Positions 2 to 32,111 of a stretch of DNA of 34,111 nucleotides are shown here, piece after piece. The position numbers were made by a program, and so were the translations under genes. The notes beneath the pieces are model-generated. The model saw nothing but the letters and a program-made list of their open reading frames with translations. It did no database searches and had not been told where the DNA came from. Position 1 is the first letter of the stretch; each line of letters starts with the position of its first letter. This DNA is from Ignavibacteriota bacterium. GTDB lineage: Bacteria; Bacteroidota; Ignavibacteria; UBA10030; UBA6906. The DNA is taken from assembly GCA_016218065.1 (NCBI GenBank), contig JACRFA010000174.1, forward strand, positions 1-34,111. The letters run 5' to 3'.

Positions 2-394
2 GGTGCACCGGGCGGGACATCGAAATACATTTCCGTTGCTGAACTGCGCGTGTATCGTTCAGGCGCAACCGCTGTGCGATCAAACGGACAACCGGACGAG
101 TTCATGCTCTCGCAGAACTATCCCAATCCGTTCAATCCTTCCACGACGATTCAGTTCAGCCTACCGAATACGAGTCGCGTGTCGATAGCCGTCTTCAATA
201 CACTCGGACAGAAGGTGCGAACGTTGGTTGATCGTGAATTGCCTGAGGGTTCGCATCAGATTTCGTGGGACGGAAAAGGGGACGCAGGAGGGATCGTTCC
301 ATCAGGCATGTACTTCTGCCGGATGTCTGCTTTGAGTTCTTCAGGGCAAGGAAGCGAATTTGTATCTACTCGAAAAATGATTCTGACAAAATAG
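2..394 (+). CDS. C-terminal part of a T9SS-sorted secreted protein (5' end outside window)
   Basis: The reading frame is open from the first bases, so the window starts inside the gene. The GTG at 50 is internal. The visible 130 residues begin with a short beta-rich stretch (SKYISVAELRVYRSG) and then a complete sorting domain: [18 protein letters not shown], a strand resembling VSIAVFNTLGQKVRTLV, then SGMYFCR and a tail ending KMILTK. Domains of this type direct folded proteins across the outer membrane through the type IX system, where they are cleaved or anchored. The catalytic or binding part lies upstream and cannot be identified. A strong terminator follows the stop codon. Confidence 0.85.
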   Translation, partial: GAPGGTSKYISVAELRVYRSGATAVRSNGQPDEFMLSQNYPNPFNPSTTIQFSLPNTSRVSIAVFNTLGQKVRTLVDRELPEGSHQISWDGKGDAGGIVPSGMYFCRMSALSSSGQGSEFVSTRKMILTK

Positions 395-4859: not shown

Positions 4860-4871
4860 TTGTTCACCGGT

Positions 4872-4897
4872 GCCGGGAGTCTTTTCTGACTCCCGGC
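4872..4897. other. Intercistronic hairpin between receptor and Asp-box gene
   Basis: A perfect 10-bp stem (GCCGGGAGTC, loop TTTTCT, GACTCCCGGC) lies 12 bp after the receptor stop. No T-run follows and the next ribosome-binding site starts 11 bp later. It looks more like an mRNA 3'-end stabiliser or processing site than an efficient terminator. Confidence 0.6.
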
Positions 4898-4920
4898 TAT
4901 GATTCACAAGGAGGCCTTTG

Positions 4921-6576
4921 ATGAAAACGCTCACACGCTTCGCCTGCTGCGCTCTGCTGCTGATTGCGCACATAGCTTTCGCTTCCGATGGAAGCAATTT
5001 TGCCAATCGGTCGGCATCGCTGCAGTTCGGTCCACCATTTCGGCTCTATCCCAGCAGCACACGTCAAACCGAAACATTCATCACGCGCAATCCGATCAAC
5101 AACAATATTCTCTTTGCTTCGGCAAATACCATCGGTCCAACCGGTTTCATCAGCGAAGGCGTGTATGTTTCGACTGATGCGGGCCAGACCTGGACCGGCA
5201 ACGACACCTGCACCGGCGGACCCGTGCTCGGGTTCCACAAAGGAGATCCGGCAATAGCAATCGACCGAAACGGGACATTCATCTTGGTGCGACTTGGATT
5301 TTCGCCCGGCGCGTTTTCTCACTGGTCAACAACAAACGGCCGCACGTGGACCAACCAAAAGACAATTTCCACCGACGATCAAGATCGCGCGTCGGTCGCT
5401 TCCGATCCGCTGGCGGCAAGCGCATTCTTCGGCAGAACTTATGCAACATGGGTTCGTCTCGCTCCGCCGTATCGCATCTACTACTCCTATACTGATGATG
5501 GCGGACTGAACTGGACTGTACCCGCGAGCATGAACAATCCCTCTCAGCGAGGCCAGGGCGCGGAAGTTTCCATCGGTCCCAACGGGCGCATCAATATCTG
5601 CTGGGCGGGCGTCATCCCAAGCTCACCGTACACGGAAGATTTTGTTGGCTTCGCCACATCGACGGACGGCGGCTCGACATGGACGGTGACTGAAAACGCA
5701 TACGACATGAATGGCATTCAGGGCACCTTCACACAAAAAGGAAACATCCGCGTCAACGGACTTCCGAAAATCGATACCGATCGCACCGGTGGTCAGCGCA
5801 ACGGATGGATCTACATCGTGACAACGCAAAAAAACCTCGCGCCCGCCGGCTCCGACCCCGACGTCATCATCCATCGCTCGACCGATAATGGCCAGACGTG
5901 GCTTCCCGGCGTTCGCGTCAATCAAGATCCGCTCAACAACGGAAAGTATCAGTACTTTCCCGCGATTCATGTTGACGATGGAGGCGGCGTGAATGTTCTG
6001 TATTACGACGATCGAACAACAAACATCGACTCGGCGGGCGTTGCGGTCTCGCGGTCGGTTGATGGCGGAGCGACATGGACAGACTATCGTCTTGTCGATC
6101 GCCACTTTAGACCTCAGCCGATCAGCAGCAGTTTTGGACAAGGTTACCAAGGAGATAACATTGGCATGACATCAGTCGGCAACACGCTGTGGCCGGTTTG
6201 GATGGATAACTCAAGCGGCATCTATCAGATCTGGACGTGCCCGATCAATCTCTCGTCAGTTTCCGTTGACGCAATCGATCAGACGATTCCCGCGCTGTTG
6301 AAGCTCAATCAAAATTTTCCGAACCCCTTTAATCCAGCAACAACAATTGGGTTTGAGGTTCCGAGTTCGGGCATGCCTGCCGGTAGGCATGGGTTTGTGT
6401 CGCTCAAGGTCTTTGACGTTCTCGGAAGAGAAGTCGAAACTCTGGTTCACGAGGATCTGAAGGGAGGCAACTACACACGAGTGTTCGATGGTTCACGGCA
6501 TCCGAGCGGCGTGTACTACTATCGTCTCACGACCAGTGCGTTCTCGGTTACAAAGAGTATGGTGTTGATGAAATAA
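4921..6576 (+). CDS. Secreted sialidase-fold (Asp-box repeat) protein with T9SS sorting domain
   Basis: The start is the ATG six bases after a full AAGGAGG; the adjacent in-frame TTG is less likely. A signal peptide (1-21, ending AFAS) is followed by a six-bladed propeller marked by Asp boxes: STDAGQTW (~84), STTNGRTW (~136), YTDDGGLNW, STDGGSTW, STDNGQTW and SVDGGATW. Such folds occur in sialidases and other glycosidases, but also in non-enzymatic surface proteins. The sialidase arginine triad is not evident, so activity is uncertain. The last ~95 residues are a sorting domain (QNFPNPFNPATTIGFEVP ... VFDVLGREVETLV ... SGVYYYR, tail MVLMK). An in-frame palindromic insertion (SSGMPAGRHG) splits the first strands of that domain. 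It may be cotranscribed with the receptor (61-bp gap with a hairpin). Confidence 0.85.
   Translation: MKTLTRFACCALLLIAHIAFASDGSNFANRSASLQFGPPFRLYPSSTRQTETFITRNPINNNILFASANTIGPTGFISEGVYVSTDAGQTWTGNDTCTGGPVLGFHKGDPAIAIDRNGTFILVRLGFSPGAFSHWSTTNGRTWTNQKTISTDDQDRASVASDPLAASAFFGRTYATWVRLAPPYRIYYSYTDDGGLNWTVPASMNNPSQRGQGAEVSIGPNGRINICWAGVIPSSPYTEDFVGFATSTDGGSTWTVTENAYDMNGIQGTFTQKGNIRVNGLPKIDTDRTGGQRNGWIYIVTTQKNLAPAGSDPDVIIHRSTDNGQTWLPGVRVNQDPLNNGKYQYFPAIHVDDGGGVNVLYYDDRTTNIDSAGVAVSRSVDGGATWTDYRLVDRHFRPQPISSSFGQGYQGDNIGMTSVGNTLWPVWMDNSSGIYQIWTCPINLSSVSVDAIDQTIPALLKLNQNFPNPFNPATTIGFEVPSSGMPAGRHGFVSLKVFDVLGREVETLVHEDLKGGNYTRVFDGSRHPSGVYYYRLTTSAFSVTKSMVLMK
6372..6391. repeat. Palindromic repeat inside the coding region of the sorting domain
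   Basis: CATGCCT and AGGCATG flank GCCGGT, giving a 7-bp stem. In protein terms it adds roughly SGMPAGRHG between FEVP and FVSLKVFD, where the other sorting domains in this window usually run straight on. The base pattern (CCTGCCGGTAGG) is typical of short mobile palindromes. Confidence 0.65.
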
Positions 6577-6630
6577 CCTGCGACTGATCATGGACTTTCA
6601 CTTGGTCGCTATGTCCTTCGGAAACGCACT

Positions 6631-6957
6631 TTAGTTTTGGAGCAACGAGTCGCGAATATCTTCAAACGCAAGCGAAGCCGAAAAGGGAATGAGTGCTTCA
6701 GTTACTACCTTTTCTACCTCCCTTAGTCGTCGTAATGCGATCTCGATTTCTCTCGTTGGTGTCTTCTGAGTCTTCTTCACAAGCCGTGAAGCAGAACTAT
6801 GGTGCGTCCCTTCTTGAAACAATACAGTACCCTCGCCGCTCTGTTTCTTCCGGTGATTCGCACCTCGAAGAGATTGCGTTTACCTTCCATTTTCTTGGAT
6901 AACGATCAAAGTGTGAACGGATTTTCCCCATGATGCTGAGAAAGCATTCTTCTAAAG
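6631..6957 (-). pseudogene. Broken HigB/RelE-type toxin (Gp49-like) remnant
   Basis: Read on the minus strand, three pieces line up with the Gp49/HigB toxin family: HHGENPFTL, an in-frame TGA (6906-6908), SLSKKMEGKRNLFEVRITG ... RVLYCFKKGRTIVLLHG, then a one-base deletion near 6780-6782, after which the frame resumes as VKKTQKTPTREIEIALRRLRE. The family core is 'LWEVRI ... R.LYFF..G.IVLLHGF.KKTQKTP..EIE.A..R'. The N-terminal third is missing, because only about 55 bp of minus-strand sequence separate the first recognisable piece from the MazF stop codon. No HigA antitoxin follows. The gene is therefore dead through truncation, a nonsense codon and a frameshift. Confidence 0.78.
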
Positions 6958-6959
6958 AT

Positions 6960-7301
6960 TCAGAGACGGAAATGTTTGCGAAGATAGTGTGCGATTTGTT
7001 CCATCACGGATTGGTCTGCTTCCCCTATCCGATGGACAAATCTTCGTTTGTCGAACGATGAAACCTGATGGACTTTGAGGAGTGAGTCATGGAGCAACCG
7101 ATTTCGTTCGGTCTTCATCAGAAGAACATCGTCGCCATCTCTCTTTTCGATTTTTGATGACACCGGCACAACCGTGACCAAGTCAGAATGCTCTGTCACG
7201 ACATTAGACTGAATCACCAATGCCGGACGCATTTTTTGGTATTCCCGCCCTACACTTGGATCAAAATCCACAAGGTAGATATGTCCGAAAAGAATCTCCA
7301 C
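6960..7301 (-). CDS. mazF: MazF/PemK-type endoribonuclease toxin
   Basis: The family cleaves mRNA at short sequences and is held inactive by a cognate antitoxin. The 113-residue protein has the MazF core: GHIYLVDFDPSVGREYQKMRPALVIQSN (6-33), the VTVVPVSSKI strand (~42-51), LLHDSLLKVHQVSSFDK (~69-85) and a C-terminal helix EQIAHYLRKHF. It starts at a GTG whose G is the last base of the upstream antitoxin's TAG, so translation is coupled. It appears intact. Its 3' end abuts the broken HigB remnant. Confidence 0.88.
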   Translation of the reverse strand: MEILFGHIYLVDFDPSVGREYQKMRPALVIQSNVVTEHSDLVTVVPVSSKIEKRDGDDVLLMKTERNRLLHDSLLKVHQVSSFDKRRFVHRIGEADQSVMEQIAHYLRKHFRL

Positions 7302-7516
7302 TACCTGAGTGAGAGATAGTGTCGTATCTCTTCCGGATCGAGAAAATCTCCGTCAGAGGTGTCCTGAAGCGAAGCCGACTCGATATCTGCGAAGCCGACA
7401 TCGTCTGTCTGCTCATCCTTCAACACTGTGACGAGAAGTTTATCCGATGTTTGCAATTGCAACGGATCTTCGAGTCGGATATTTTTCCCGTCAAAATACG
7501 CGCGGGCAGTTTGCAT
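7301..7516 (-). CDS. Antitoxin partner of the MazF toxin
   Basis: This 71-residue protein begins MQTARAYFDGKNIRLEDP, the opening of short antitoxins often annotated as MazE-like or DUF2281-like that precede PIN or MazF toxins. The start is chosen because GGAGG lies six bases upstream; an ATG 24 bases earlier lacks such a site. The N-terminal half is a beta-rich DNA-binding-like region and the acidic tail (DDVGFADIESA ... GDFLDPEEIRHYLSL) would wrap the toxin. It shares one base with the toxin start codon. It probably represses its own promoter in the 7517-7600 region, by analogy with the family. Confidence 0.78.
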   Translation of the reverse strand: MQTARAYFDGKNIRLEDPLQLQTSDKLLVTVLKDEQTDDVGFADIESASLQDTSDGDFLDPEEIRHYLSLR

Positions 7517-7654
7517 GTGTCCTCCAATTCCGGTTTGCATCTACCTGTATCAACCTACAAAGTGGTTGAAAGAAAAGCAAACAAGAGAGTGAAGCAAATA
7601 CAAAGCCCACCCCCATGAAGGCGATGGGCTTGGGTCAGACGAGAAACGCAGGCA

Positions 7655-7742
7655 TGATTTGTTTGACCAATAAGAATTTCTTGTTGAAACATAACTCCGT
7701 GTCGAGCCTCTCGAAGCATTACCAGCTTGCAGAGGAAAGAAG
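7655..7742 (-). pseudogene. Remnant of a T9SS sorting-domain tail
   Basis: On the minus strand this encodes FFPLQAGNASRGSTRSYVS followed by TRNSYWSNK, which aligns with the end of the Asp-box gene 0.8 kb away (YRLQAGDASTGSARSFVATKKLLLL). It has no start, no domain upstream and no sensible stop. It even keeps the same 24-bp inserted repeat (7696-7719). It is a scrap of a duplicated 3' end of that gene. Confidence 0.65.
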
Positions 7743-7745
7743 TAA

Positions 7746-7873
7746 ACCCCGCCACAAATGTGACGGGGTCCTTGTTTTGCCAATGGTTCGTTGGACACGG
7801 AGTTCTCGACGGCGTCAGCGGACAGGCGGTAGTACCGACGAGGTCTGATTGCCCAACGAGGTCATCGGAGCAA
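7746..7873. repeat. Terminator-bearing repeat, copy 1
   Basis: About 128 bp nearly identical to the copy at 8403-8527: a 3-bp indel in the T-rich stretch after the hairpin, one change in GACACGG/GACGCGG, and a few changes near the right end. It starts with an imperfect palindrome (CCCCGCCACA ... TGTGACGGGG) that works as a terminator stem on the minus strand. Its right end carries the codons LLR-stop of a sorting-domain tail, preceded by PKQDA on the minus strand. The repeat therefore spans the last codons plus the 3' untranslated region of a T9SS gene. Confidence 0.75.
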
Positions 7874-7993
7874 GGCATCTTGTTTCGGCCAGTTCGCCGC
7901 CAACGAGAATTCGCGCCAACCGGCTGAGGGACAGACCGATTTATCGAGTGTTGCGGATGTTGATTTGAACATAGCAATCAGCTACATTGAACC

Positions 7994-8155
7994 ATGCGAG
8001 TATACTTCGATAACTCAGCGCTTCAACGACCGCTTGATACGAAGAATCAAGCCCGAATTATCTTGGAGGCTGAGGCTGTTCTTGTGCTCGTTGCGGCGCT
8101 CGAAGAGAAAAGGTACGAGCTTGTTGGCTCTCAGGTTGTAGAGTTGGAGAACTAA
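7994..8155 (+). pseudogene. Truncated PIN-domain (VapC-like) toxin
   Basis: The 53-residue product starts MRVYFDNSALQRPLD and continues RIILEAEAVLVLVAALEEKR and YELVGSQVVELEN, matching the first third of a PIN-domain family whose members start 'M.VY.DN...NRPFDDQ..RI.LE.EA'. The conserved acidic residue Asp6 and the Glu-rich helix are present, but a TAA right after LEN removes the remaining ~100 residues, including the other metal-binding acids. The DNA after the stop does not resume the domain in any frame I read. It is probably a non-functional toxin fragment. Confidence 0.7.
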
Positions 8156-8159
8156 GATT

Positions 8160-8372
8160 ATGACAGGATACGACAAATCTTTAGCCGAAATTAACGGAGA
8201 AGCGATACGCATACTCTGCCGAGAAATCGGACTCGTGAACACGATCCGTTTTCTGAACCAATACACTGCCGGATTGGGGGACTACACGGAAGAACGAAAG
8301 AAACTATTCGGCGCAATGCCTCTCGATCAAATCACTTCCGAGATTAAGCAAGCTCGACAAAAAGTCAGTTAG
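8160..8372 (+). CDS. Small partner protein of a PIN toxin (putative antitoxin)
   Basis: This 70-residue protein (MTGYDKSLAEINGEAIRILC ... GLVNTIRFLNQYTAGLGDYTEER ... LDQITSEIKQAR) looks like a small soluble helical protein. The 'VNTIRFLNQ.T.G.GDYTEER' core is a widespread family of unknown structure that I recall as the neighbour of PIN genes of the truncated type seen just upstream, with a presumed antitoxin role. Here it follows the toxin fragment by 4 bp, whereas the family's usual order (from memory) is partner first. The reading frame is intact although its toxin is not, so it may be an orphan antitoxin. Confidence 0.65.
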   Translation: MTGYDKSLAEINGEAIRILCREIGLVNTIRFLNQYTAGLGDYTEERKKLFGAMPLDQITSEIKQARQKVS

Positions 8373-8425: not shown

Positions 8426-8527
8426 TTGTCTTGCCAATGGTTCGTTGGACGCGGAGTTCTCGACGGCGTCAGCGGACAGGCGGTAGTACCGACGAGGTCT
8501 GTCAGCCTAACGAGTTCATCGGAGCAA
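8403..8527. repeat. Terminator-bearing repeat, copy 2
   Basis: This is the second copy of the element at 7746-7873. It overlaps the last four codons and stop of the YCF48-like gene, so the repeat unit is that gene's 3' end plus untranslated region and terminator. Between the hairpin and the stop lies a ~90-bp segment rich in short palindromes (GTTCTCGAC, GGCGGTAGTACCG). Confidence 0.75.
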
Positions 8528-9841
8528 AAGAAGCTTTTTCGTTGCGACAAAACTCCGTGCTGAGCCTGTCGAAGCATCGCCTGCCTGTAGGCGATAGAAA
8601 TACGTTCCCGACGGCATGTTCTTCGCATCCCACTCGGTTTTGAATGTGCCCGCGTTCAAATGTTCATTTACAAGCGTGGCTACTTCTCTGCCGAGGATGT
8701 CGAAGATTTTCAATGACGCTTCGGATGATTTGGGCAGAGAGAATTCTATTGTTGTTGTGGGATTGAAGGGATTGGGATAATTCTGCTCGAGGCTGAACAC
8801 AGCCGGCAACATTTCGTTCGGCTCCGTCGCTTCCATCACCCTGTTCTTGTATTTGTACACGAAGCCCGAATCAGTCACCAAATAGCCGGTGAGCGAATCG
8901 GTGAAGGTAAGATCGTACGGAATGCGCCAGCCCAATGTATCGACGATGTTCCATGTGCGTGCTGTGTCGTACGTAACCATCAGCGTATTGCCAACCGGCA
9001 CCCAGGCTTCCCGCGGCGTACGCCACGACATCGCCCGCGGCTGACCAAAGATCGCGAGATAGGTGTATTCCCATGTCCTCCCTCCATCACTTGAGCGAAT
9101 CATGCTTGCCCCAAAATCAAAGTCGCCGGCAATGCCAATGAAGTTCAACGAGTCGACAAAGTGCATTTCATACACCGGTTCCGGACTCACATTCAGGACA
9201 AACCAGTTCTCGCCGGCATTGGTTGTTACCCAGAGTGCGCCTGCAAAATCCAGCGCCCCACCCATGCCGAAGCCAACTTCCTTGGAGAAGAATCTGACAT
9301 TGAGAATCGCCATCTGCGAAAGCTCAGACGAATCCACGCGTGCACGCGTCCATGTGAGACCACCGTCTGTCGTCTTTTCAATGTCTCCCCCCTCGCCCAC
9401 CATCCACCCATCGAGTGAATCAAAGAACGTGAGAGCGTGAAAATACTTTCCCCAAATCGGATATTGCGCGGCATGCCAGGTGTTTCCACCGTTTGTAGTT
9501 CTGATAATCCGCGTCCCGAAGAACGTCGCTGTGTCGATGTAGTCGTCCCAACACAGTCCCCACCCGTAGCGATCATTGAGCATGAAGAGGCAATGAAAAT
9601 CTCCGGTCACGCCTGAATGCTGTTGTTCCCAGCTGCTTCCCCCGGTGGTTGTTCTGAAGATCACTCCCTCGCGCCCGCAGACCCATCCGGTTGCGCTGTC
9701 GATGAAGCTGAGCCGCCGCAGATCTTTCGTCGTCGGCTGTGCAATCGATCGCCACGGAGATTGAGCGAATGCGCTGTACGCGAGAATCGGGAACAACGCG
9801 GTCAGCAGAAAAAAGCGATGAATCACAGAAGTAGATTTCAT
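8516..9841 (-). CDS. Secreted YCF48-like beta-propeller with T9SS sorting domain
   Basis: The start is set at MKSTSVIHRFFLLTALFPIL, a signal peptide ending AFAQ. The open frame extends 42 residues further upstream but without signal-like sequence. Asp-box blades repeat about every 45-55 residues: TTTGGSSW, TTNGGNTW, TTDGGLTW, TTNAGENW, SSDGGRTW and a degenerate TYDTARTW, each preceded by a 'FFDS..GW..G' strand. This is the YCF48/Hcf136-like propeller arrangement seen in many secreted proteins of this phylum, usually without known activity. The sorting domain starts [18 protein letters not shown] and ends KKLLLLR. A 9-residue in-frame insertion (DASTGSARS) sits just before FVATKK. The metalloprotease gene lies 118 bp upstream on the same strand. 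Confidence 0.85.
   Translation of the reverse strand: MKSTSVIHRFFLLTALFPILAYSAFAQSPWRSIAQPTTKDLRRLSFIDSATGWVCGREGVIFRTTTGGSSWEQQHSGVTGDFHCLFMLNDRYGWGLCWDDYIDTATFFGTRIIRTTNGGNTWHAAQYPIWGKYFHALTFFDSLDGWMVGEGGDIEKTTDGGLTWTRARVDSSELSQMAILNVRFFSKEVGFGMGGALDFAGALWVTTNAGENWFVLNVSPEPVYEMHFVDSLNFIGIAGDFDFGASMIRSSDGGRTWEYTYLAIFGQPRAMSWRTPREAWVPVGNTLMVTYDTARTWNIVDTLGWRIPYDLTFTDSLTGYLVTDSGFVYKYKNRVMEATEPNEMLPAVFSLEQNYPNPFNPTTTIEFSLPKSSEASLKIFDILGREVATLVNEHLNAGTFKTEWDAKNMPSGTYFYRLQAGDASTGSARSFVATKKLLLLR
8554..8577. repeat. Short dispersed repeat inserted in-frame in a sorting domain
   Basis: On the minus strand the 24 bases contain ATGCTTCGACAGGCTCAGC, a sequence like the widely scattered 'TTCGACAGGCTCAG' intergenic repeats of environmental bacteria. 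It adds eight residues (DASTGSAR) between LQAG and SFVATKK. Its diverged twin is at 7696-7719. Confidence 0.6.
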
Positions 9842-9920
9842 TGAAGTGAAAAAGTGTTCAATGCAAATGTATGGAGGGAGAAGTGGAGAATCAACGGCGC
9901 GGGGAAAAAATGTCGCATTG

Positions 9921-9941
9921 TCATTCTGAACTTCAGAATGA
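9921..9941. repeat. Perfect palindrome between the protease and propeller genes
   Basis: TCATTCTGAA, C, TTCAGAATGA forms a 10-bp inverted repeat with a one-base centre. It lies about 20-40 bp past the metalloprotease stop. On the minus strand the T-run (ATTTTTTCCC) starts some 10 bases after the stem, so termination is uncertain. It resembles the common GTCATTCTGAAC intergenic repeat. Confidence 0.6.
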
Positions 9942-9959
9942 AACGGCAGTGGCAGGATC

Positions 9960-12050
9960 TCACTCAAGCAGCAACATTTTTTTTGATTGAGTGAAGCCCG
10001 GAGCGATCAAACGATAGATGTAAATGCCGCTCGCCAAACGCGACGCATCGAACACAACGGACCTATGCCCCGGCGGTTCGATGCCGTCAACCAACGTTGC
10101 AACTTCGCGCCCAAGAAGGTCGAATACCTTCAGTGTAACAAATCCTGAAGGGATCCCTACGGAGAATCTGACCGTTGTTGTTGGGTTGAACGGATTCGGA
10201 TAATTCTGAAAGAGCTGGCACTCATGAGGCGACTCAGTCACCGCGTCATCCACTTCACTCACTGAACTCGCGTTGCATTGAAAGACTTCCGACCATACTG
10301 AAGTCTTTCCTTGCACATCACGCACACGCACACAGTAACGTACCGGAATTGTACCGCTCGTGTCACAGGTTATCGTCTCATCCGTCCACGCCATCGTCGA
10401 TCCCTGAAATATCGATGCCCAATTGTCATTTGCAACTTGTCTCTGCAACTCAGACCAGTTCACGTCCGCTTCAAGCGGCTGTCCCTCGCTCCACTGGCTG
10501 CCCCATGCAAGCGAGAGATGTGGTGAAGATGCCGTTGCCCCGAGATACCGTCGTGCCGGCGAACCATCCAACGGGTTAGAATATGACCGAAGCGTGATGA
10601 CGCCATCCTGTTCAGAGAGTATCTCAATGCAGAATGAAGTTTGTTGGTTCTGCCATGTGTTTGTGTTGGGATTGCTGTAAGTAGAAAAAACAGGATCACT
10701 CGCATTGAAAGAACCGCTGAACTGATCACCGGCGGAAAAGACTCCGCACTGCAATTGTCCTGAAGGATCACTGAAGGCTTGCAGCCAATTTATCGCGCTT
10801 GTGCCGTTCGGAATTTGATCGCGATGCGACAATCCAACTGGATGAGGAGATTCCTTTCGAAACACAGGCAAAGTTCGGGCGAAGCACTGCGTTGTTGTCG
10901 AAGGATTTCCCCATCTCCAGCTTCCATCGGATGGCTTGATTCTAAAATTGTCCGTTTCCGAACACGGACTCTGTTGGTGGAGAACCCAAACACCTTTGTC
11001 GCTCGTATTGATTGTCACATCGTCAAACATCGAGCGTTGCTGATGGTTTTCGATGTAGAAATACTCAAAAGGCTCGCCATTCTGCGGATGGTATTTGAGC
11101 GCCGCTCCGCTGGTAAGATAGTCCGTAAGCGCAATGTCCTGATCGCGAGGTATATCGGGAACAACGATCCAGCCAAGCCGTTCGCGTTCGAACGCATTCG
11201 CGCACGATGCGACGCGCTGATTACTGCAAAGAATTCCCCAGTACGCATGCTTATCGCTCAGCAACTCACTGTTGTACGGATGCAGTTTGCCAAGCAGCCA
11301 GTGACCCAATTCGTGCACCATCGTTTGCATGACTTTCTGCGGCGAGTCACTGTAAATGTACTGGCACGTGATTCCCGACCCGCGAGGATAGGGAAGATAC
11401 GCCGGATATCCGGTTTCTATTCGTATCCCGTCAACCGTGAAGCCTGGCCAATATCCAAGCGACGCTTCGCCTAGATACTCGAACATGTTCGTCCGCCACA
11501 CCATAATGATCATGTCCACCAGACTATCGGGTGTTTGGGCATGATGATAGTCTGACAACTTCGTCCACTGATCATACTGACGGAAATCGATCAGCGGATC
11601 AACCTGCTCTTGCAGAAGATTCTTGTTCGCGCGCCCGTACGCCCCCTGGCGATACTCTTCTTGCGAGTGCGTTGACTCGATCCAGATTGCCTCGCCGACA
11701 AGGTTGAACTGTCCGAGTGACATTTGCCGGAAGTAATTTGTGAGATTGAATGATGCAGATGATCGCGTAAGCGTGTCGGGATCGATGAACTGTTGCATGA
11801 ACTGCGGCGGCTGATGCCTCTGCCAGTACGGATGAGGCGTGCTGTCGTCGGGGAAACTCGCGAACACAATCAACACGCGCAGTGTACCCTTTGCCGTCAT
11901 GTAAATGCCACCGGTATCCGCAAAGGCCACCGAGTTCACTGGTGTTGAGTGCGCAGAACAGAGCTTTTCATCCTTCGCTTGCGCAATCGTACTACCGAAA
12001 ACAGCATTGGCGAGGAACAGAACGGTAAGTATGTTTCGGTGTAAACTCAT
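9960..12050 (-). CDS. Secreted zinc metalloprotease (HExxHxxGxxH) with T9SS sorting domain
   Basis: The signal peptide covers residues 1-24 ([20 protein letters not shown]). The motif [12 protein letters not shown] at 246-257 supplies three zinc-binding histidines and the general base Glu247, the metzincin-type arrangement. The preceding region ([12 protein letters not shown] near 58, [16 protein letters not shown] near 102) matches the start of M6/immune-inhibitor-A-like peptidases, in which 'S.G.F...G' strands precede the active site. Cysteines are frequent for a cytosol-free secreted protein (QCGVF, SFCIEI, CDTSG, CVRVRD), suggesting disulfides. A fibronectin-like region ([18 protein letters not shown]) leads into the sorting domain [17 protein letters not shown] ... 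[12 protein letters not shown] ... KKMLLLE. The start is the ATG giving a proper signal peptide; no clear ribosome-binding site is seen. Confidence 0.85.
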
Positions 12051-12078
12051 CACGACCAATATGCAAAACAGTCGCCTT

Positions 12079-12113
12079 GAAAAGCAAAGGCAGGCAACAT
12101 CTCGCTGCCTGCC
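12079..12113 (-). terminator. Rho-independent terminator after the octaheme cytochrome gene
   Basis: On the minus strand GGCAGGCA, a 9-nt loop and TGCCTGCC are followed by TTTGCTTTTC. It lies about 40 bp after the cytochrome stop and before the metalloprotease start, so the cytochrome gene is probably its own transcript. Confidence 0.75.
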
Positions 12114-12149
12114 CTCGCGTTACTGATTCAAGAAAAATCCAACCCGTCG

Positions 12150-14267
12150 TTACTTCATCATGATCATCTTCTTTGTCATCACAAAGCTGCCGGCCTTCAC
12201 GCGATAGAGATACATGCCGCTGGCAACTCTTGCGCCGTCGTTGTTTGTTCCGTTCCATGTCGCTTCGGCATTGCCCGAACGAAGTGTCTCATCAAGAACT
12301 GTCTTCACCAATGCACCGGTTATGTCAAACACTTGGAGCGTTACATGTTGATCGCTCGGCAGTGAGAACCGAATATTGGTTGTCGGGTTGAAGGGGTTCG
12401 GATAGTTCTGGGCAAGCGCGAACTCTGTTGCCGTTCCCGGCAGTTGCTTCACGGAATTCGTGAGCGGTGTCCAGCCCAGGGCTTGATACAAAATACGCAC
12501 AGCATACTTCGAATTATGTACGCCCTTGCTTCTATCTTCCAGGACAAACTTGTATGCCCATATGCCGCGCAGATAATCAAGCCGGTTTGCGATCAACGCC
12601 GAATCCGCGGCCGTGACTGTTCCACCACCGACAACTTCTCCATTTCTCTGTGGCAGCACAGCCTTCAATCTATCAAGCAATCCTTGAATTTCCGTTTGTA
12701 CACCTTCGATCCGTCCGTTCCGATCAAAATCGTAGAATGCACGAATGTCATTGAAGTCTTCAATCTCACCGTGGCAGCTCTTGCAAACAGTCACTGCTCT
12801 GAAACCATAGGTCGTATCCGTCATGCTGAATGAATGGTTTGCGAGAGTGTTGTTGCTGCGCATTCTTCCTTGCATATGGCAAGTGACGCATCCGCCTTCA
12901 AGCCCTGCGTGAGTCGCGAGGCCAACAAAGCTGGAGTCTGTTTGAGATCCGTTCGCACCGTACAACATATCAGTTTGCATGTTGTAGTGGGGATAGAAGC
13001 GGGATGAAAATCCGAAGTACGGCGGTTGAGTAGCTTTGATGCGAACGTTGATGCTGTAGCGCGATGAATGGCAATTGCCACAGAGGTGGCCAGGGCTTGT
13101 TCTGAGGTTCGCCGGAAGTACGTATCCATTGCGAAGTGAGTCGCCCTTAAGAGTCATCGTGCGGAGTTGTTTGGGATTGCTGCTGCCGTGCGGATCGTGG
13201 CATACCTGGCAACTGATTGATGTGCCCGCATCTCTGCTTGCAACCCATCCTGCAGCAAGTCCGGTTGTATCCTTGTTGTGGTCCATGTAGTACATGAAAC
13301 CTTTGCCTGTGTGGCAAGGCTGGCAGTTCGAGCGGCCACCTTCGGAGGCTCCACCATAGAGCAACTTCGCATGTCCCGACGTATTGTAGTATGTTCCAAG
13401 GCTGTGGCGTCCTGAACCATCATGGCATTGATTGCAAACGTCGCCGCTGAGTGTCTTTCCAACCTTCATCTTGTCTCCGGTCAACTTATGGTCGCCGGCC
13501 GGACCGTGGCACTGTTCGCACCCGACATTCGCTTGCATCTTCTGGTTTGCATTCAGCATGTTCCATCTGCTGGTGTCACCTGTTGTAATCCAATAGTCGC
13601 CGCCAAAGAATTCAAGGCCCTGGTACCATGTGTTGAGCCACCCGGTCGTGCCCTTTACTTGGAACCCAAAATTGTTGTTCGCAGCCAGCGTGTCATATCC
13701 CGTTGTGTGGCACTTGATGCAGCCATTCGCATACGCACCCTTTCCGCGTTCAACTTCGAGGTAGCCAGTCGTTCCGCGCTTGAGCATTGTTCCGTGAACC
13801 GAGGCTGCCCAGCTTGTTTTGATCGCTGCCGCTGTTGGATGGCAGAAGCAACCCGCCTGGGCATCGGCGCCCACGCCAACGTATGTGCTTGCCCACACGG
13901 TGTCGCTTGCTGATTGAGAACCGACTGTTGAGGTGACAATATATTGACCACCAACATCAGCCTTGAAACTGTTCATGAACTTGCCCGCCGCGCTGTCCAA
14001 CACTGCAGCCGATCCGGCTGGTAGTGTCAGAGTCCATGCTGGCGAGCCTGTTGCTCCCGACCCCAGTGTATCAACTTTGAAGTAGGCTCTGGATTGAATG
14101 CCGATTGAGCGCAGACCCGGCGCAATGTTCCAAGCCGAACCGGAAGGCAGTTGGTTCAAAGATCGTCCGACTGTTTTCACCTTGATTGCTGCCGTTGAAT
14201 CGGCAACAACCGCGAACACGAGGCCCAAGATGATCAACACCGAACAGATAGAAACGAAGCGTTTCAT
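12150..14267 (-). CDS. Octaheme c-type cytochrome carrying a T9SS sorting domain
   Basis: The protein carries a signal peptide (1-27, hydrophobic VLIILGLVFAVVA) and an Ig-like N-terminal region (to ~130). Eight CXXCH haem sites follow: CIKCH 183, CEQCH 250, CNQCH 278, CQPCH 315, CQVCH 353, CGNCH 396, CVTCH 460 and CKSCH 495. A ninth, shortened CFCH site is at 140. Extra histidines (SVHGT, DHNKD, TSPGH, THAG, NHSF) could be distal ligands. After the haem region an EF-hand-like loop (DFDRNGRIEG, ~513-522) precedes a helical linker, then the sorting domain [18 protein letters not shown] ... SGMYLYRVKAGSFVMTKKM. Cytochromes of this kind mature in the periplasm, and the sorting domain implies export to the cell surface. 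A role in extracellular electron transfer or a surface reductase is inferred. The gene has its own terminator. Confidence 0.88.
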   Translation of the reverse strand: MKRFVSICSVLIILGLVFAVVADSTAAIKVKTVGRSLNQLPSGSAWNIAPGLRSIGIQSRAYFKVDTLGSGATGSPAWTLTLPAGSAAVLDSAAGKFMNSFKADVGGQYIVTSTVGSQSASDTVWASTYVGVGADAQAGCFCHPTAAAIKTSWAASVHGTMLKRGTTGYLEVERGKGAYANGCIKCHTTGYDTLAANNNFGFQVKGTTGWLNTWYQGLEFFGGDYWITTGDTSRWNMLNANQKMQANVGCEQCHGPAGDHKLTGDKMKVGKTLSGDVCNQCHDGSGRHSLGTYYNTSGHAKLLYGGASEGGRSNCQPCHTGKGFMYYMDHNKDTTGLAAGWVASRDAGTSISCQVCHDPHGSSNPKQLRTMTLKGDSLRNGYVLPANLRTSPGHLCGNCHSSRYSINVRIKATQPPYFGFSSRFYPHYNMQTDMLYGANGSQTDSSFVGLATHAGLEGGCVTCHMQGRMRSNNTLANHSFSMTDTTYGFRAVTVCKSCHGEIEDFNDIRAFYDFDRNGRIEGVQTEIQGLLDRLKAVLPQRNGEVVGGGTVTAADSALIANRLDYLRGIWAYKFVLEDRSKGVHNSKYAVRILYQALGWTPLTNSVKQLPGTATEFALAQNYPNPFNPTTNIRFSLPSDQHVTLQVFDITGALVKTVLDETLRSGNAEATWNGTNNDGARVASGMYLYRVKAGSFVMTKKMIMMK

Positions 14268-14726
14268 GTTGAAGTTTTCCTTTCTTTTGTATTGAGTAAG
14301 TCAAGTCCGCTGAGACGGACCTGGTAGAACGAAGCTGAAAATCTCACTTCACGACACCGAAGAATAGCCAATAGGCGTGCCAGCGAGAAACTGCCCAGTA
14401 GTCGGTGATTTCGGAAGCAGTATTTATAAATGGAGAATCGCTTGTCGAATCATGAAGAAAATCGGAGATGTACCGTTGACAGAAAAACGGAGATGCCCAA
14501 CTGTTAAATCGGATGATTTAGTCTTATTACTAATAGGAATCTTTCTTCCAGATTTGAGAAAACTCTCAACACCTTCGCAAGTGGTAATGCGTAGCTGGTT
14601 AGTTCATAAACACGCGAGGCGTCCCGCATCTCACGAAGTTGTGCAACACGCGTTAGGCATTTTTTTCTGTGAGGAAGAAGAAATGGGCAGGTCGAAAAAG
14701 GAGGGTCACACGGAAGATCGAACCAC
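14268..14726. other. Gene-free interval between cytochrome and uvrC
   Basis: No convincing gene, RNA or repeat was found. The left part must hold the cytochrome promoter (minus strand); the ribosome site is probably AAAGGAAAA about 10 bases before its ATG. The right part is A/T-rich (around 14510-14560 and TTTTTTT near 14660) and receives the end of uvrC. A plus-strand frame of 120 codons crosses it but encodes no recognisable or signal-bearing protein. Confidence 0.6.
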
Positions 14727-16631
14727 TCACAAATCTTGAGCTTTTGAACTCAAGACCTGAACCTCAGACTCTGACGCAATTCCCGCAAAGTACTCGGCGA
14801 TCTTTGAAGCTACCTTCTCACCAACAACCTCAGCGATTTGTCCCTGCGTCGCGAACTTCACGCCTTGAACGGAACCGAACGCTTCGAGAAGCTCCTTCGC
14901 TCGCTTCTTGCCGATGCCTTCGATGAGATCCAATTCCGTTTGAAGCGTCCGCTTCGCTCGAAGCGAGCGGTGATACGTGATAGCAAATCGGTGCGCTTCA
15001 TCTCTAACTTGCTGAAGAAGTCGAAGTCCTGATGATGATTTCGGGATCAGTTCAGGCTCACTCTTTTCGGGAAGGAATACTTCCTCGAGTCGCTTTGCCA
15101 AACCAATGATGGGCTGACTTTGAATGCCGAGCTTGTTCAGAACCTCCATCGCACTCGAAAGCTGACCTTTGCCTCCGTCAACCATAATCAGGTCCGGCAT
15201 CTCCGAACCTTCGTTCAGCACACGCGCATACCGTCGTTCGACAACCTCGCGCATGCTTGCAAAGTCGTCCGGCCCCACCACGGATCTGATTTTGAATTTT
15301 CGATACTCGCTCTTTTTCGGCTTGCCATCAACAAACACAACCATCGAGGCAACGGGGTCTGTTCCCTGAATGTTCGAATTGTCAAAACACTCGATCCGCC
15401 GGGGAAGCTTGGGCAAACGAAGATCACGCTGCAACGCAGTCACTGCGTGGGGAACGTAGTCTGCCCGTTTCATTTTCTGGATCTTCAATTCATCAAGCAG
15501 GAACTTTGCATTGCTTTGCGAAAGGCGGACAAGCTTCGCTTCTTCTCCCTCGGTCGGAAAGAGAAGTGTCACTGCATCGCCCCGCTTTTGTGACAGCCAG
15601 CGCTGAACAGCTTCAGTATCTTCGATGGAGCCTGAAAGGAAAATCTCCTTCGGAATGTCTTCGGCATCGAGATAGTATTGTTGCAGCAAAGCCTCCAGAA
15701 CTTCCGCTGCAGGCTTCTCGTCAACATTGTTCATATAATAATGCTGACGTCCAATCAGCTTCCCATCACGAATCTTGAACACGACGCCGCATGCATCGTC
15801 TCCTTCGGAAGCAAATGCGACGATGTCGCGATCAATCGGGTCAAGATCGACTGCTTTCTGTTTTTCAGAATATGCTTGAAGTCCCTTGATGCGGTCCCGC
15901 AGGGTTGCCGCCTCTTCAAACTTCATCTCCGCCGCAACGCGTTCCATCTCCTCCTGAAGCAGCTGAATGAGGGTTTCTGTTTTCCCTTGCAGCAGCTGGG
16001 CAACCTGATCGATCATCGCGTTATAGCGTGCCTGCGTTACGAGGCCTTCACACGGCCCTTCGCATTTCTTGATGTGGTAATCGAGACAGACTTTGATCTT
16101 TCTCTTCTTGATCGCATCGTCGTCGATGAAGTAGTTACAACTGCGAATCATGAAAATGTCGCGAACTGTCTTGAGCGCGGCGCGGACATTCTTCACGTCC
16201 GTGTACGGACCAAAATACCGTGAACCATCGCGCCGAATCTGCCGCGTGATGAACACGCGAGGAAATGGCTCGTTGGTGATAACGATATAGGGATAGCTCT
16301 TGTCGTCTTTGAGATTGACGTTATACCGTGGCTTGAACTTCTTGATGAGGTTCGCTTCGAGAATGAGCGCCTCGACTTCGGAGTCAGTGACAATGATCTC
16401 GAGGTCAGTCGCCTTCGACAGCATCTTGTCGATGCGGGCTTCGACATTCCGCGACTTCTGGAAGTACTGCCGTACACGATTGCGCAGATTCTTTGCTTTG
16501 CCAACGTACAGCACTTTTCCATCGGCATCTTTGTGTTGGTACACGCCGGGACCAGTCGGCAAATTCACGAGCTTTTCCTCGACTGTCGCCGCTTCGCTTG
16601 TGATTCTTATGGTGAGATGTTGGGATTCCAT
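14727..16631 (-). CDS. uvrC: Excinuclease ABC subunit C
   Basis: UvrC makes both incisions in nucleotide excision repair after UvrAB finds the lesion. The GIY-YIG nuclease domain is at 25-110 (GPGVYQHKDADGKVLYVGKA, NLRNRVRQYF). A Cys-rich patch VCLDYHIKKCEGPC follows near 181, then the UVR domain that binds UvrB (EMERVAAEMKFEEAATLRDR, ~227-246). The RNase-H-like 5' nuclease contains IECFDNSNIQGTDPVASMVVF (~392) and LIMVDGGKGQ (~458). Tandem helix-hairpin-helix motifs (LIEGIGKKRAKELLEAFGS) close the protein. The length of 634 residues is normal. It lies 15 bp after the M1 peptidase gene on the same strand, so the two are probably cotranscribed. Confidence 0.97.
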   Translation of the reverse strand: MESQHLTIRITSEAATVEEKLVNLPTGPGVYQHKDADGKVLYVGKAKNLRNRVRQYFQKSRNVEARIDKMLSKATDLEIIVTDSEVEALILEANLIKKFKPRYNVNLKDDKSYPYIVITNEPFPRVFITRQIRRDGSRYFGPYTDVKNVRAALKTVRDIFMIRSCNYFIDDDAIKKRKIKVCLDYHIKKCEGPCEGLVTQARYNAMIDQVAQLLQGKTETLIQLLQEEMERVAAEMKFEEAATLRDRIKGLQAYSEKQKAVDLDPIDRDIVAFASEGDDACGVVFKIRDGKLIGRQHYYMNNVDEKPAAEVLEALLQQYYLDAEDIPKEIFLSGSIEDTEAVQRWLSQKRGDAVTLLFPTEGEEAKLVRLSQSNAKFLLDELKIQKMKRADYVPHAVTALQRDLRLPKLPRRIECFDNSNIQGTDPVASMVVFVDGKPKKSEYRKFKIRSVVGPDDFASMREVVERRYARVLNEGSEMPDLIMVDGGKGQLSSAMEVLNKLGIQSQPIIGLAKRLEEVFLPEKSEPELIPKSSSGLRLLQQVRDEAHRFAITYHRSLRAKRTLQTELDLIEGIGKKRAKELLEAFGSVQGVKFATQGQIAEVVGEKVASKIAEYFAGIASESEVQVLSSKAQDL

Positions 16632-16646: not shown

Positions 16647-18701
16647 CTATCGAATCAAGCACATTTTTCTTGTCAGCGTAGAGCCACCCGCGCTAAGTCT
16701 GTACACATACACGCCGCTGGATATACCTGTTCCGCTAAACACTCTCTCATGACGTCCGGGCTTCAGCTCGTCATTCACCAACGTTGCCACTTCGCGACCA
16801 AGCATGTCAAAAACCTTCAACGACACAAATCGTGTGGTGAGAGAAATCGAACTGCCAGAGCCTCCCCGTTCATCAGGAAGGCCGGCAATCTCAAACCGTA
16901 TTGTCGTCGAAGGATTAAAGGGATTGGGATAGTTCTGCTCCAACTGAAATACGTATGGCCGCCGGATCTCTTCAACGACATCCGTAAACGAAACCATCTG
17001 CTTCAAAATCCATCCGTCAGGATCGAAAATCACGCTGTCCGGCTGAGTCGAAAGTGGAAGCTTGAATGTCTGGAGGCGAAGACTATCATGAACAATGTAG
17101 TCGCGAGTGTTTGCCCCGAAGTAAGCACGAACGCGGATCGGCATCTTAAATATCGGCCACGCTGCTTCCTGGTTTTGCTGAACTGTGTACGTCAGCGTGT
17201 CGGCGTTCCACGTGAACCTCGTCGCATACTTTGGCCATCCCTTGCCAAAGATCCATTGGTTGAAGAACCAGCTCATGTCTCGCCCGGCAACGGAGTCGAC
17301 GACATTCTGCAACTCAGATGTGATTGCACTTTTGCCTGCGTACTTCGCCTGATATGCGCGCAGCGATTTGAAGAACACCGAATCGCCGACTACGCCGCGC
17401 AAAGTGTGCAACACCCACCCGCCTTTCGAGTACACGGCCCGGGTGAAGAGATCAAACCCCTGTCCCACCGGATCGTAGATCGCGCCTTGCCACGAGACGA
17501 ACTGAAATTGACTGAGCGTATCGCGCATGTAGGCTTTCAGTGAATCGAAGCCATAAAGATGTTCGCGCCAGAGCGCTTCGCAGTACGTCGCGAAACTTTC
17601 GTTCAGCCAGATGTCTGCCCATGTGCCGCATGTAACGTTGTCGCCCCACCACTGATGCGCCAGCTCGTGCGACACAACCCAGTGGCTCGTAGCATAGTAA
17701 CGGTTCATCGTGGTAATGGTCTGATGTTCCATGCCGAGGTAACCAAACGGAACAATCGCCGTCATGCCGTATTTGTCGAACGGATACTCGCCAAACAAAC
17801 CGGCGTACGCGGAGACCATCTGTCTGACAGTCGGCAGAAACGCGGCGGTCCAAGCGGAATCGACGAACGGCACGGCATTCCACGAGTAGTACTGCAACGG
17901 AATCGTGTCGCCTGTGGACTTGATGTATGGAAGGGACGAAACGGAAAACCGCGAGACCGTCATACAAACAAGGTGAGTCGCGATGGGTTGGCTCTGCAAC
18001 CAGCGCCACGTGAGTGTTCCATCCAGATTATTCGTCGTGCCGAGAAATTTACCGTTGGAGGCGGCGACGTAGCCGCTGGAAACAGTCACGTTAATCTCAG
18101 CCGTCGCTTTCTCCCACGGCTGATCGTAACATGGAAACCAGAACCGCGCATCCGACGGCTCAGAGAATGTGTAGCCAAGGTTTGCGGGAAGACCTATTGT
18201 GTCTCTGAAGAAATAGAATCCCTGCCGCGAACTTGTTCGTCGGAAGTTCTGCAGACGATGATATGCGATGTCGATCAACAATGTATCGCCCGCATGTCGC
18301 GTCTCATTCAACGGAATCGTGAACGTCTCTGTGAGCGAATCAAGCTGTGCCGACTTCGCCACCCCGTCGACGCGTACCGTGTCGAGCGCAAGTCCAACGG
18401 AATTCAGAACGAGTGAATCGACGTTCCGCTTCAGCTTCATTTTCATGAAACATCTTCCCGCCAGCGCATCGGATGTCATGGGAAGCGTGATGTCGAGTTT
18501 GTAGTGAAGCATATCAAAGGGCTGCGGACCTTCATACGCATCCATCACCAACGCGTGCGATGTCAGGTATCGCAGATCCGGCAAACCGATCCTTCCCTCC
18601 TTTTCAACCGGGACTTGCCGATGTTGGGCCACGACTCTGAGCACAACAACCAGAATCCAGAATCCCAGAGCCAGAATCCTTCGCCTATTCAAATGCTTCA
18701 C
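16647..18701 (-). CDS. M1-family aminopeptidase with T9SS sorting domain
   Basis: M1 enzymes are zinc aminopeptidases. The signal peptide (1-25) ends VVAQ. The catalytic core has HELAHQWWGD at 345-354 and the third zinc ligand Glu368 in WLNESFATY, with exactly 18 residues between, plus a substrate-side motif YLGMEHQT (321-328) in place of the classic GAMEN. A tyrosine in AVYSKGGWVLHTLR fits the transition-state Tyr. The sorting domain follows ([18 protein letters not shown] ... [18 protein letters not shown] ... RKMCLIR) and carries an extra loop (GLPDERGGSGSSISLTTR). The start is a GTG with GGAG five bases upstream, overlapping the transporter gene end by 17 bp. Cargo status implies digestion of peptides outside the cell. 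Confidence 0.92.
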   Translation of the reverse strand: MKHLNRRRILALGFWILVVVLRVVAQHRQVPVEKEGRIGLPDLRYLTSHALVMDAYEGPQPFDMLHYKLDITLPMTSDALAGRCFMKMKLKRNVDSLVLNSVGLALDTVRVDGVAKSAQLDSLTETFTIPLNETRHAGDTLLIDIAYHRLQNFRRTSSRQGFYFFRDTIGLPANLGYTFSEPSDARFWFPCYDQPWEKATAEINVTVSSGYVAASNGKFLGTTNNLDGTLTWRWLQSQPIATHLVCMTVSRFSVSSLPYIKSTGDTIPLQYYSWNAVPFVDSAWTAAFLPTVRQMVSAYAGLFGEYPFDKYGMTAIVPFGYLGMEHQTITTMNRYYATSHWVVSHELAHQWWGDNVTCGTWADIWLNESFATYCEALWREHLYGFDSLKAYMRDTLSQFQFVSWQGAIYDPVGQGFDLFTRAVYSKGGWVLHTLRGVVGDSVFFKSLRAYQAKYAGKSAITSELQNVVDSVAGRDMSWFFNQWIFGKGWPKYATRFTWNADTLTYTVQQNQEAAWPIFKMPIRVRAYFGANTRDYIVHDSLRLQTFKLPLSTQPDSVIFDPDGWILKQMVSFTDVVEEIRRPYVFQLEQNYPNPFNPSTTIRFEIAGLPDERGGSGSSISLTTRFVSLKVFDMLGREVATLVNDELKPGRHERVFSGTGISSGVYVYRLSAGGSTLTRKMCLIR

Positions 18702-31574: not shown

Positions 31575-32111
31575 TCATTTGAGCAAGAGTAGCTTTTTCG
31601 TATTAACGAAGCTTCCTGCCTGCAGTCGATAAACGTACATGCCGCTTGCAAGTCCATTGGCATCGAAGACCAGCCGGTATCTTCCCGGCTCTTGCACGTC
31701 ATCAAAGAGTGTCGCGACCTCCTGCCCCAACAGATCATACAACTTCAACTGCACTCTGTTTGCGGCGGGAATCTGATAGCGTATTGTTGTCGTCGGATTG
31801 AATGGATTTGGATAGTTCTGTTCCAGATCGAATGTCGAGGGGATCCCTTCACGCAATTCGGGGACTGAAACTATCCCACCGCCAAGTCGCGTAGCGCCGG
31901 AAAGGAAACCGACAAGAATCACGTCGCCACCGCCGGCGCTTCGTCCAATCGCAGCTTCTCCCACAAATGCTCGCACGACATTTCCTGAACCACTCTGCAC
32001 TCCGTAGCCTGTGCCAAACGCAGAAAGAGGAATTGCAACGGGCTGAGCAAATACGGTCTGCACAGACGCACACAGCAATGCTGCCATCGCAACAGTGAAT
32101 AACTTCTTCAT
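31575..32111 (-). CDS. Small secreted protein that is mostly a T9SS sorting domain
   Basis: A signal peptide (1-22, ending VFAQ) leads to a ~60-residue Gly/Ala-rich beta region (FGTGYGVQSGSGNVVRAFVG, GGGDVILVGFLSG), and then a complete sorting domain [18 protein letters not shown] ... DLLGQEVATLFDDVQEPG ... KKLLLLK. The mature N-terminal domain is too short for an enzyme. AAAGGAG lies six bases before the ATG. It follows the 466-residue secreted gene by 42 bp on the same strand and is probably its partner. Confidence 0.85.
   Translation of the reverse strand: MKKLFTVAMAALLCASVQTVFAQPVAIPLSAFGTGYGVQSGSGNVVRAFVGEAAIGRSAGGGDVILVGFLSGATRLGGGIVSVPELREGIPSTFDLEQNYPNPFNPTTTIRYQIPAANRVQLKLYDLLGQEVATLFDDVQEPGRYRLVFDANGLASGMYVYRLQAGSFVNTKKLLLLK

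What the first reader, a model, noticed from the sequence alone, without database searches (positions are those of the whole stretch)
12150..14267. Octaheme cytochrome c sent out through the T9SS
Eight CXXCH sites (and a shortened CFCH at 140) sit in the same polypeptide as a complete sorting domain. Haem attachment occurs in the periplasm, so this cytochrome would be folded with eight haems and then moved to the cell surface. The known extracellular cytochromes of other phyla use porin-cytochrome conduits or type II secretion, so a T9SS-exported cytochrome would be a different route to surface electron transfer. The EF-hand-like loop (DFDRNGRIEG) between the haem and sorting parts may be a calcium-set hinge.
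Basis: partly seen in the sequence, partly recalled or inferred. Interest (0 to 1): 0.8.

Follow-up and report, generated by a model that had tools for sequence, protein, structure and literature searches.

The report
Exported nine-haem surface cytochrome
This gene encodes a predicted electron-carrying protein with nine haem sites and a tag that should send it to the cell surface through the type IX secretion machine; the combination is conserved across a class of mostly uncultured bacteria and suggests a so far undescribed way of placing the outer end of a respiratory chain outside the cell.

Summary
The gene is on the minus strand (12150-14267, 705 aa), with eight CXXCH (0.015 expected in shuffles), a CFCH and a type A T9SS sorting domain (TIGR04183 40 bits, cut-off 23). 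It is better called nonahaem: all 18 Cys of the mature protein lie in nine haem motifs, and 28 orthologues share nine further invariant His. The haem core is not MtrC- or OmcS-like; it groups with OcwA, the nonahaem cell-surface terminal reductase of Thermincola (profile E 1.4e-41; fold Z 15.1). The genome encodes Sov/SprA, PorU, PorV and at least 150 sorting-tail matches. Every intact full-length nonahaem orthologue checked carries the tail; relatives in other phyla lack it. Two more T9SS-tailed multihaem proteins sit near an MtrA-MtrB pair in the same genome, and in several relatives the orthologue adjoins a multihaem/quinol-oxidising cluster. Best reading: a T9SS-exported, OcwA-type surface terminal reductase. 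The EF-hand-like loop lies inside the haem domain and is not a hinge. Export, haem loading and substrate are untested. No paper found in the open library describes this pairing.

The parts
12150..14267 (-). Gene for a 705-aa T9SS-tailed nonahaem c-type cytochrome
   Evidence: orthologues
14187..14267 (-). Sec-type signal peptide, residues 1-27 (MKRFVSICSVLIILGLVFAVVADSTAA), no lipobox
   Evidence: sequence inspection; no signal-peptide program was available
13884..14180 (-). N-terminal Ig/PKD-like beta domain, residues about 30-128
   Evidence: AlphaFold model, pLDDT mostly 70-84 in this part; matches to Ig-like domains at model 1-105
13839..13850 (-). Haem site 1, CFCH (CX1CH), residues 140-143; canonical CXXCH in most orthologues
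13707..13721 (-). Haem site 2, CIKCH 183-187
   Evidence: invariant in A1
13506..13520 (-). Haem site 3, CEQCH 250-254
13422..13436 (-). Haem site 4, CNQCH 278-282; invariant His288 follows and aligns with OcwA's HH281/282 distal pocket
13311..13325 (-). Haem site 5, CQPCH 315-319
13197..13211 (-). Haem site 6, CQVCH 353-357
13068..13082 (-). Haem site 7, CGNCH 396-400; invariant His427 follows, in the segment of OcwA's HH380/381 pocket
12876..12890 (-). Haem site 8, CVTCH 460-464
12771..12785 (-). Haem site 9, CKSCH 495-499
12702..12731 (-). EF-hand-like loop DFDRNGRIEG, residues 513-522, a probable Ca2+ site at the start of the C-terminal helix bundle
   Evidence: D/D/G/E columns invariant or nearly so in 28 orthologues; calcium binding itself is inferred
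12471..12701 (-). Three-helix bundle, residues 523-599, carrying invariant His584-Asn (GVHN), as in the NrfA/OcwA group
   Evidence: model helices at pLDDT 71-93
12153..12428 (-). T9SS type A C-terminal sorting domain, Ig-like beta sandwich, residues 614-705
   Evidence: TIGR04183/PF18962; model matches to PorU, PorZ and mirolase CTDs

Best explanation
The protein is a cell-surface terminal electron-transfer cytochrome of the OcwA/NrfA structural group, delivered by the type IX secretion system. Proposed path: (1) Sec export to the periplasm (signal peptide visible in the sequence). (2) Haem attachment at nine sites in the periplasm (inferred from motifs; haem 1 through an unusual CX1CH). (3) Folding into a nine-haem core closed by a C-terminal three-helix bundle with a probable Ca2+ loop (supported by profile and fold match; model confidence moderate). 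(4) Recognition of the C-terminal domain, passage through Sov/SprA with PorV, cleavage and surface attachment by PorU (machinery genes shown; transport inferred). (5) At the surface it takes electrons from an outer-membrane conduit or from sibling multihaem cytochromes and passes them to an extracellular acceptor such as Fe(III) minerals, humics, shuttles or another cell (inferred from OcwA and from gene neighbourhoods).
For: Tail above curated cut-offs with the expected fold. Sov/SprA 1014 bits, PorU 732 bits, PorV 294 bits and at least 150 sorting-tail matches in the genome. Tail present in every intact full-length nonahaem orthologue inspected, including all 28 loci of the phylum-wide sample, and absent from homologues of Planctomycetota, Verrucomicrobiota, Armatimonadota, Bacillota and Methanoperedens. 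All 18 Cys of the mature protein are in haem motifs; nine proximal plus nine other invariant His in 28 orthologues. Best solved relatives are cell-surface cytochromes: OcwA (A3 profile 146 bits, E 1.4e-41; Foldseek rank 1; VIA Z 15.1, rmsd 4.0, 325 aligned) and C. ferrireducens 6qvm (Z 15.9, rmsd 4.5, 332 aligned). OcwA is a proposed cell-surface terminal reductase (PMC6703420); in C. ferrireducens the related OmhA is sheared from the cell surface and found on magnetite (PMC7829351). In relatives the gene adjoins 13-haem, 19-haem, cytochrome b and NapC-like genes (L170, L185, L186; the 13-haem gene in L169) or the 12-, 5- and 4-haem genes (L173) of the same kind of cluster.
Against: No experiment. 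In the window's own genome the gene stands alone beside uvrC and a peptidase, with no electron-transfer partner next to it. The motor part GldM/PorM and the PorP family were not detected, though those searches had no positive control. The haem core was modelled without haems and with a shallow alignment (mean pLDDT 68.6). The NrfA resemblance also allows a nitrite or other small-molecule reductase, and OcwA itself reduces nitrite slowly.
Confidence: 0.68

Rival explanations
1. Surface-exported small-molecule reductase (nitrite, hydroxylamine or sulfur compounds): an NrfA-like enzyme placed outside the cell for detoxification or respiration, not an end-point for minerals.
For: NrfA, octahaem nitrite reductase and MccA are the next structural and profile relatives. 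The two invariant His that match OcwA's open-haem pockets are kept.
Against: No CXXCK catalytic motif; closer to OcwA and 6qvm than to NrfA by profile (146 and 114 bits against at most 83 for nitrite reductases); no obvious reason for a soluble-substrate enzyme to be exported; genomic links are to multihaem and quinol-oxidising clusters.
Confidence: 0.17
2. Periplasmic or outer-membrane-retained cytochrome whose C-terminal beta domain serves as an interaction or anchoring module, with no export.
For: The tail is also FlgD-Ig-like (PF13860), and export is not demonstrated.
Against: Above curated T9SS cut-offs; same tail as at least 150 places of this genome, which has Sov, PorU and PorV; in the model the tail matches T9SS sorting domains of PorU, PorZ and mirolase.
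Confidence: 0.08
3. Extracellular haem or iron storage, or a redox-scavenging structural protein of the surface layer.
For: N-terminal Ig/PKD-like domain and the large sorting-tail repertoire.
Against: Nine covalent haem sites, nine further invariant His and an OcwA-type haem order fit electron transfer better.
Confidence: 0.05

Closest known systems
OcwA of Thermincola potens (PDB 6i5b)
   Same: Nine haems, NrfA-type core with C-terminal three-helix bundle, cell-surface terminal reductase; best profile and Foldseek match
   Different: OcwA is from a monoderm, has no sorting tail, carries a beta-sheet insert between haems 1 and 2 and HH pocket motifs. The window protein lacks room for that insert (39 residues between motifs 1 and 2), has single His at the pockets, adds an N-terminal Ig-like domain, an EF-hand-like loop and the T9SS tail
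Undecahaem S-layer cytochrome of Carboxydothermus ferrireducens (PDB 6qvm) and OmhA of the same species
   Same: Related core (Z 15.9; profile E 7e-32) and a cell-surface electron-transfer role (PMC7829351)
   Different: Eleven haems, Gram-positive host, no T9SS tail
MtrC/OmcA/UndA outer-membrane decahaem cytochromes
   Same: Proposed place at the outer surface as last carrier
   Different: Ten haems in another fold, lipoproteins; only weak haem-motif profile hits (E 3e-4 or weaker); no lipobox here
NrfA / octahaem nitrite reductase / MccA
   Same: Same structural superfamily
   Different: Catalytic haem with CXXCK or other special motifs, five or eight haems, periplasmic
T9SS type A substrates (gingipain-type CTD)
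   Same: Sec signal plus C-terminal Ig-like sorting domain
   Different: No multihaem cytochrome was mentioned among T9SS substrates in the papers found

Membership tests
T9SS type A secreted protein | C-terminal type A sorting domain over curated cut-off | tested here: met
   TIGR04183 40.0 > 23; PF18962 35.6 > 27; fold match to PorU/PorZ CTD
T9SS type A secreted protein | Host encodes translocon, sortase and shuttle | tested here: met
   SprA/Sov, PorU, PorV over cut-offs
T9SS type A secreted protein | Host encodes motor/ring (PorK/L/M/N) and PorP | tested here: inconclusive
   GldM, GldM_4th and PorP models gave no hit, but no control genome rang; PorK, PorL, PorN not searched
T9SS type A secreted protein | N-terminal Sec signal peptide | tested here: met
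   n-h-c pattern by inspection; no predictor on hand
T9SS type A secreted protein | CTD-dependent appearance outside the cell | not testable with these tools
   needs mutants or proteomics
OcwA-type nonahaem | Nine haem c sites | tested here: met
   8 CXXCH plus CX1CH; 9 CXXCH in most orthologues
OcwA-type nonahaem | Common core fold with C-terminal three-helix bundle | tested here: met
   the model is of moderate confidence
OcwA-type nonahaem | Beta-sheet domain between haems 1 and 2 | tested here: not met
   motif 1 ends at residue 143 and motif 2 starts at 183; OcwA's insert is residues 75-156
OcwA-type nonahaem | Open haems 2 and 5 with HH pocket motifs | tested here: inconclusive
   single invariant His288 and His427 at or beside the places; coordination cannot be read from sequence
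MtrC/OmcA | Ten haems in MtrC-type domains, lipoprotein signal | tested here: not met
   nine sites, no lipobox; MtrC profile hits only E 3e-4 or weaker; the Pfam MtrC II/IV match of 39.5 bits covers residues 269-363 only
OmcS filament cytochrome | Six-haem OmcS fold | tested here: inconclusive
   weak profile hit over about 50 positions; not listed in the fold searches
Octahaem reductases (ONR, OTR, HAO, MccA) | Eight haems with a special catalytic haem motif | tested here: not met
   nine sites, no CXXCK or CX15CH

The most novel reading that the evidence does not exclude
A whole class of bacteria delivers its outermost respiratory cytochromes by the T9SS in place of the lipoprotein/T2SS route. 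Covalently haem-loaded nine-haem proteins pass the Sov channel and then dock on MtrAB-type or other conduits at the surface. In part of the clade, haem c is attached to a CX1CH motif.
Probability: 0.45. Interest if true: 0.8.

Novelty: new variant of a known kind. Interest (0 to 1): 0.62.

Why it matters
How Ignavibacteria and their relatives bring electrons to iron minerals and electrodes is poorly understood, although their genomes are rich in multihaem cytochromes (PMC7399161). If the T9SS places OcwA-type cytochromes on their surface, it joins two fields that were kept apart, gives a simple genetic test (delete porV or sov and measure surface haem and Fe(III) reduction), shows that the T9SS can move large haem-loaded cargo, and gives OcwA, known from a Gram-positive, a diderm counterpart with a defined export route.

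Tried and rejected
MtrC/OmcS comparison: only haem-motif-level hits. EF-hand as hinge between haem and sorting parts: rejected, since the loop is followed by the helix bundle with invariant His584 and lies about 100 residues before the tail. The strict octahaem label: rejected. A claim that all nine haems are bis-His was considered and dropped, because OcwA also has enough His but keeps haems 2 and 5 open and haem 9 His/Met. T9SS motor genes by GldM/PorP models: no signal and no working control. The first full-length structure model had low confidence in the haem part, so the core was folded alone. Only one genome-contig scan was available, so the named taxonomic spread is partial. Ten literature searches found no paper joining T9SS export and multihaem cytochromes; the library is open-access only, so absence there is weak evidence. 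The M. roseus multi-omics paper discusses respiration, but the passages read do not treat surface cytochromes.

Full report
Observation. The ORF lies on the minus strand, window:12150-14267, 705 aa. It has eight CXXCH and one CFCH. Shuffling the composition gives 0.015 CXXCH on average, at most 2 in 20,000 trials. Cys8 is in the signal peptide, and the other 18 Cys are all in the nine haem motifs. The C-terminus matches TIGR04183 and PF18962 above their curated cut-offs. The finding did not give the strand; otherwise it is accurate.

Nonahaem, not octahaem. In 28 orthologues (alignment A1) each of the eight CXXCH is invariant, the His of the CFCH site is kept in 27 of 28, and there are exactly nine further invariant His (P0001 residues 158, 260, 288, 299, 360, 427, 453, 478, 584). 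The first site is CX1CH in 19 and CX2CH in 25 of the sequences classified, and CX3CH in one. In the wider class it is canonical CXXCH almost throughout. So the nine-haem form is probably ancestral, and the window's clade has a shortened first motif with both Cys retained. Haem binding at CX1CH is inferred, not shown.

Fold. A profile of the haem core finds OcwA of Thermincola potens first (E 1.4e-18 with A1; E 1.4e-41 with A3), then the undecahaem cytochrome 6qvm of Carboxydothermus ferrireducens, then nitrite reductases. An AlphaFold model of the core (20 sequences, mean pLDDT 68.6, pTM 0.67) gives the two OcwA chains as the only Foldseek hits under E 0.001. The VIA look gives 6qvm Z 15.9 (rmsd 4.5, 332 aligned), W. 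succinogenes NrfA Z 15.1 (rmsd 4.4, 270 aligned) and OcwA Z 15.1 (rmsd 4.0, 325 aligned), which are tied. OcwA has nine haems: six bis-His, one His/Met, two open (haems 2 and 5) with HH pockets, and a C-terminal three-helix bundle (PMC6703420). In the window family His288 aligns with HH281/282 and His427 lies in the HH380/381 segment. Whether haems 2 and 5 are open here cannot be read from sequence.

EF-hand-like loop. DFDRNGRIEG (513-522) is conserved in the orthologues (D, D, G, E columns). The helix bundle with invariant GVHN (His584) follows, aligned to the same bundle in OcwA. The loop is therefore inside the haem domain, and a structural Ca2+ site at the start of the bundle is more likely than a hinge.

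Export. The genome (5.17 Mb, 97% complete) has SprA/Sov, PorU and PorV. PorU seems split over two contig ends, with its C-terminal part next to porV. All intact full-length nonahaem orthologues looked at carry the tail: those, the named and neighbouring loci, and all 28 loci of the phylum-wide sample. Homologues of other phyla lack it, and in the tree tailed and untailed rows are strongly clustered (3 changes against 12 expected), though deep branches are weak. Motor genes were not found, but those searches had no positive control.

Distribution. 63 of 100 relatives have a match (E <= 0.001), and 46 of 296 genomes in a phylum-wide draw at E <= 1e-20, in 40 of 139 genera. The closest named hits are Ignavibacteriae/Ignavibacteria MAGs, among them an Ignavibacterium sp., and two Bacteroidota-labelled MAGs.

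Partners. In the window the gene stands between uvrC and a sorting-tailed peptidase-like gene. In the same genome, contig C29 encodes an MtrB/PioB porin (PF11854 329 bits; TIGR03509 245.5, cut-off 240), a DmsE/MtrA-type decahaem (TIGR03508 234.5, cut-off 192) and, within 10 kb, two more multihaem proteins with T9SS tails, of 7 and 8 CXXCH. Contig C157 carries a cluster of 13-haem (with b561 domain), 19-haem, cytochrome b561, NapC-like six-haem, Rieske, cytochrome b, 11-haem and 4-haem genes. In G034, G054 and G076 the nonahaem orthologue stands directly beside the 13-haem gene of this kind of cluster, in G092 three tailed genes stand before it, and in G064 two tailed genes stand among its 12-, 5- and 4-haem genes. 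This is association, not proof of a pathway.

Mechanism. Sec export, periplasmic haem attachment, T9SS passage, surface attachment, then electron transfer from a conduit to an extracellular acceptor. The signal peptide, the tail and the machinery are shown by sequence; haem loading, passage, location and acceptor are inferred. The literature says T9SS effectors are proposed to fold in the periplasm before transport (PMC10202324), which suits haem attachment before export.

Novelty. Both halves are known kinds: OcwA-like nonahaem proteins of Gram-negatives have been noted in a phylogeny (PMC7829351), and T9SS tails are common. Ignavibacteria are known to have porin-cytochrome complexes (PMC7399161). 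Ten searches of the open library found no paper that joins T9SS export and multihaem cytochromes. Subscription papers were not searched, and database annotations may already carry both labels. I therefore rate it a new variant of a known kind.

Noticed in passing
window 13839-13850 (residues 140-143) and orthologues: The first haem motif varies in spacing (CX1CH in 19, CX2CH in 25, CX3CH in 1 of the sequences classified) while both Cys and a following invariant His are kept. CX1CH is not a haem c motif I know, and a search for it in the open papers gave one paper, which I did not open.
   Followed up: partly
L153 (G000:C29) 3766-8290 and 11746-15225: MtrA-like decahaem and MtrB/PioB porin within 10 kb of two other T9SS-tailed multihaem proteins (7 and 8 CXXCH), with no MtrC-type gene seen: a possible MtrAB conduit with T9SS-delivered outer cytochromes.
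   Followed up: partly
L154 and L155 (G000:C157): Large multihaem cluster with Rieske, cytochrome b and a 13-haem protein fused to a cytochrome b561 domain; includes a 5-haem homologue (391 aa) with a lipobox-like signal in place of the T9SS tail.
   Followed up: partly
L156 6835-11799 (G000:C147): Adjacent ORFs with 20 and 42 CXXCH motifs.
   Followed up: no
window 2-394, 4918-6576, 8516-9967, 9960-12059, 16647-18701, 31575-32111: Six other ORFs of the window carry the same NYPNPFNP-type sorting tail, among them a peptidase-like protein and an M1-type aminopeptidase-like protein.
   Followed up: no
L169, L171, L172, L174: Longer tailed relatives of 920-1000 aa form a separate clade in the tree, often next to the shorter orthologue.
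   Followed up: no
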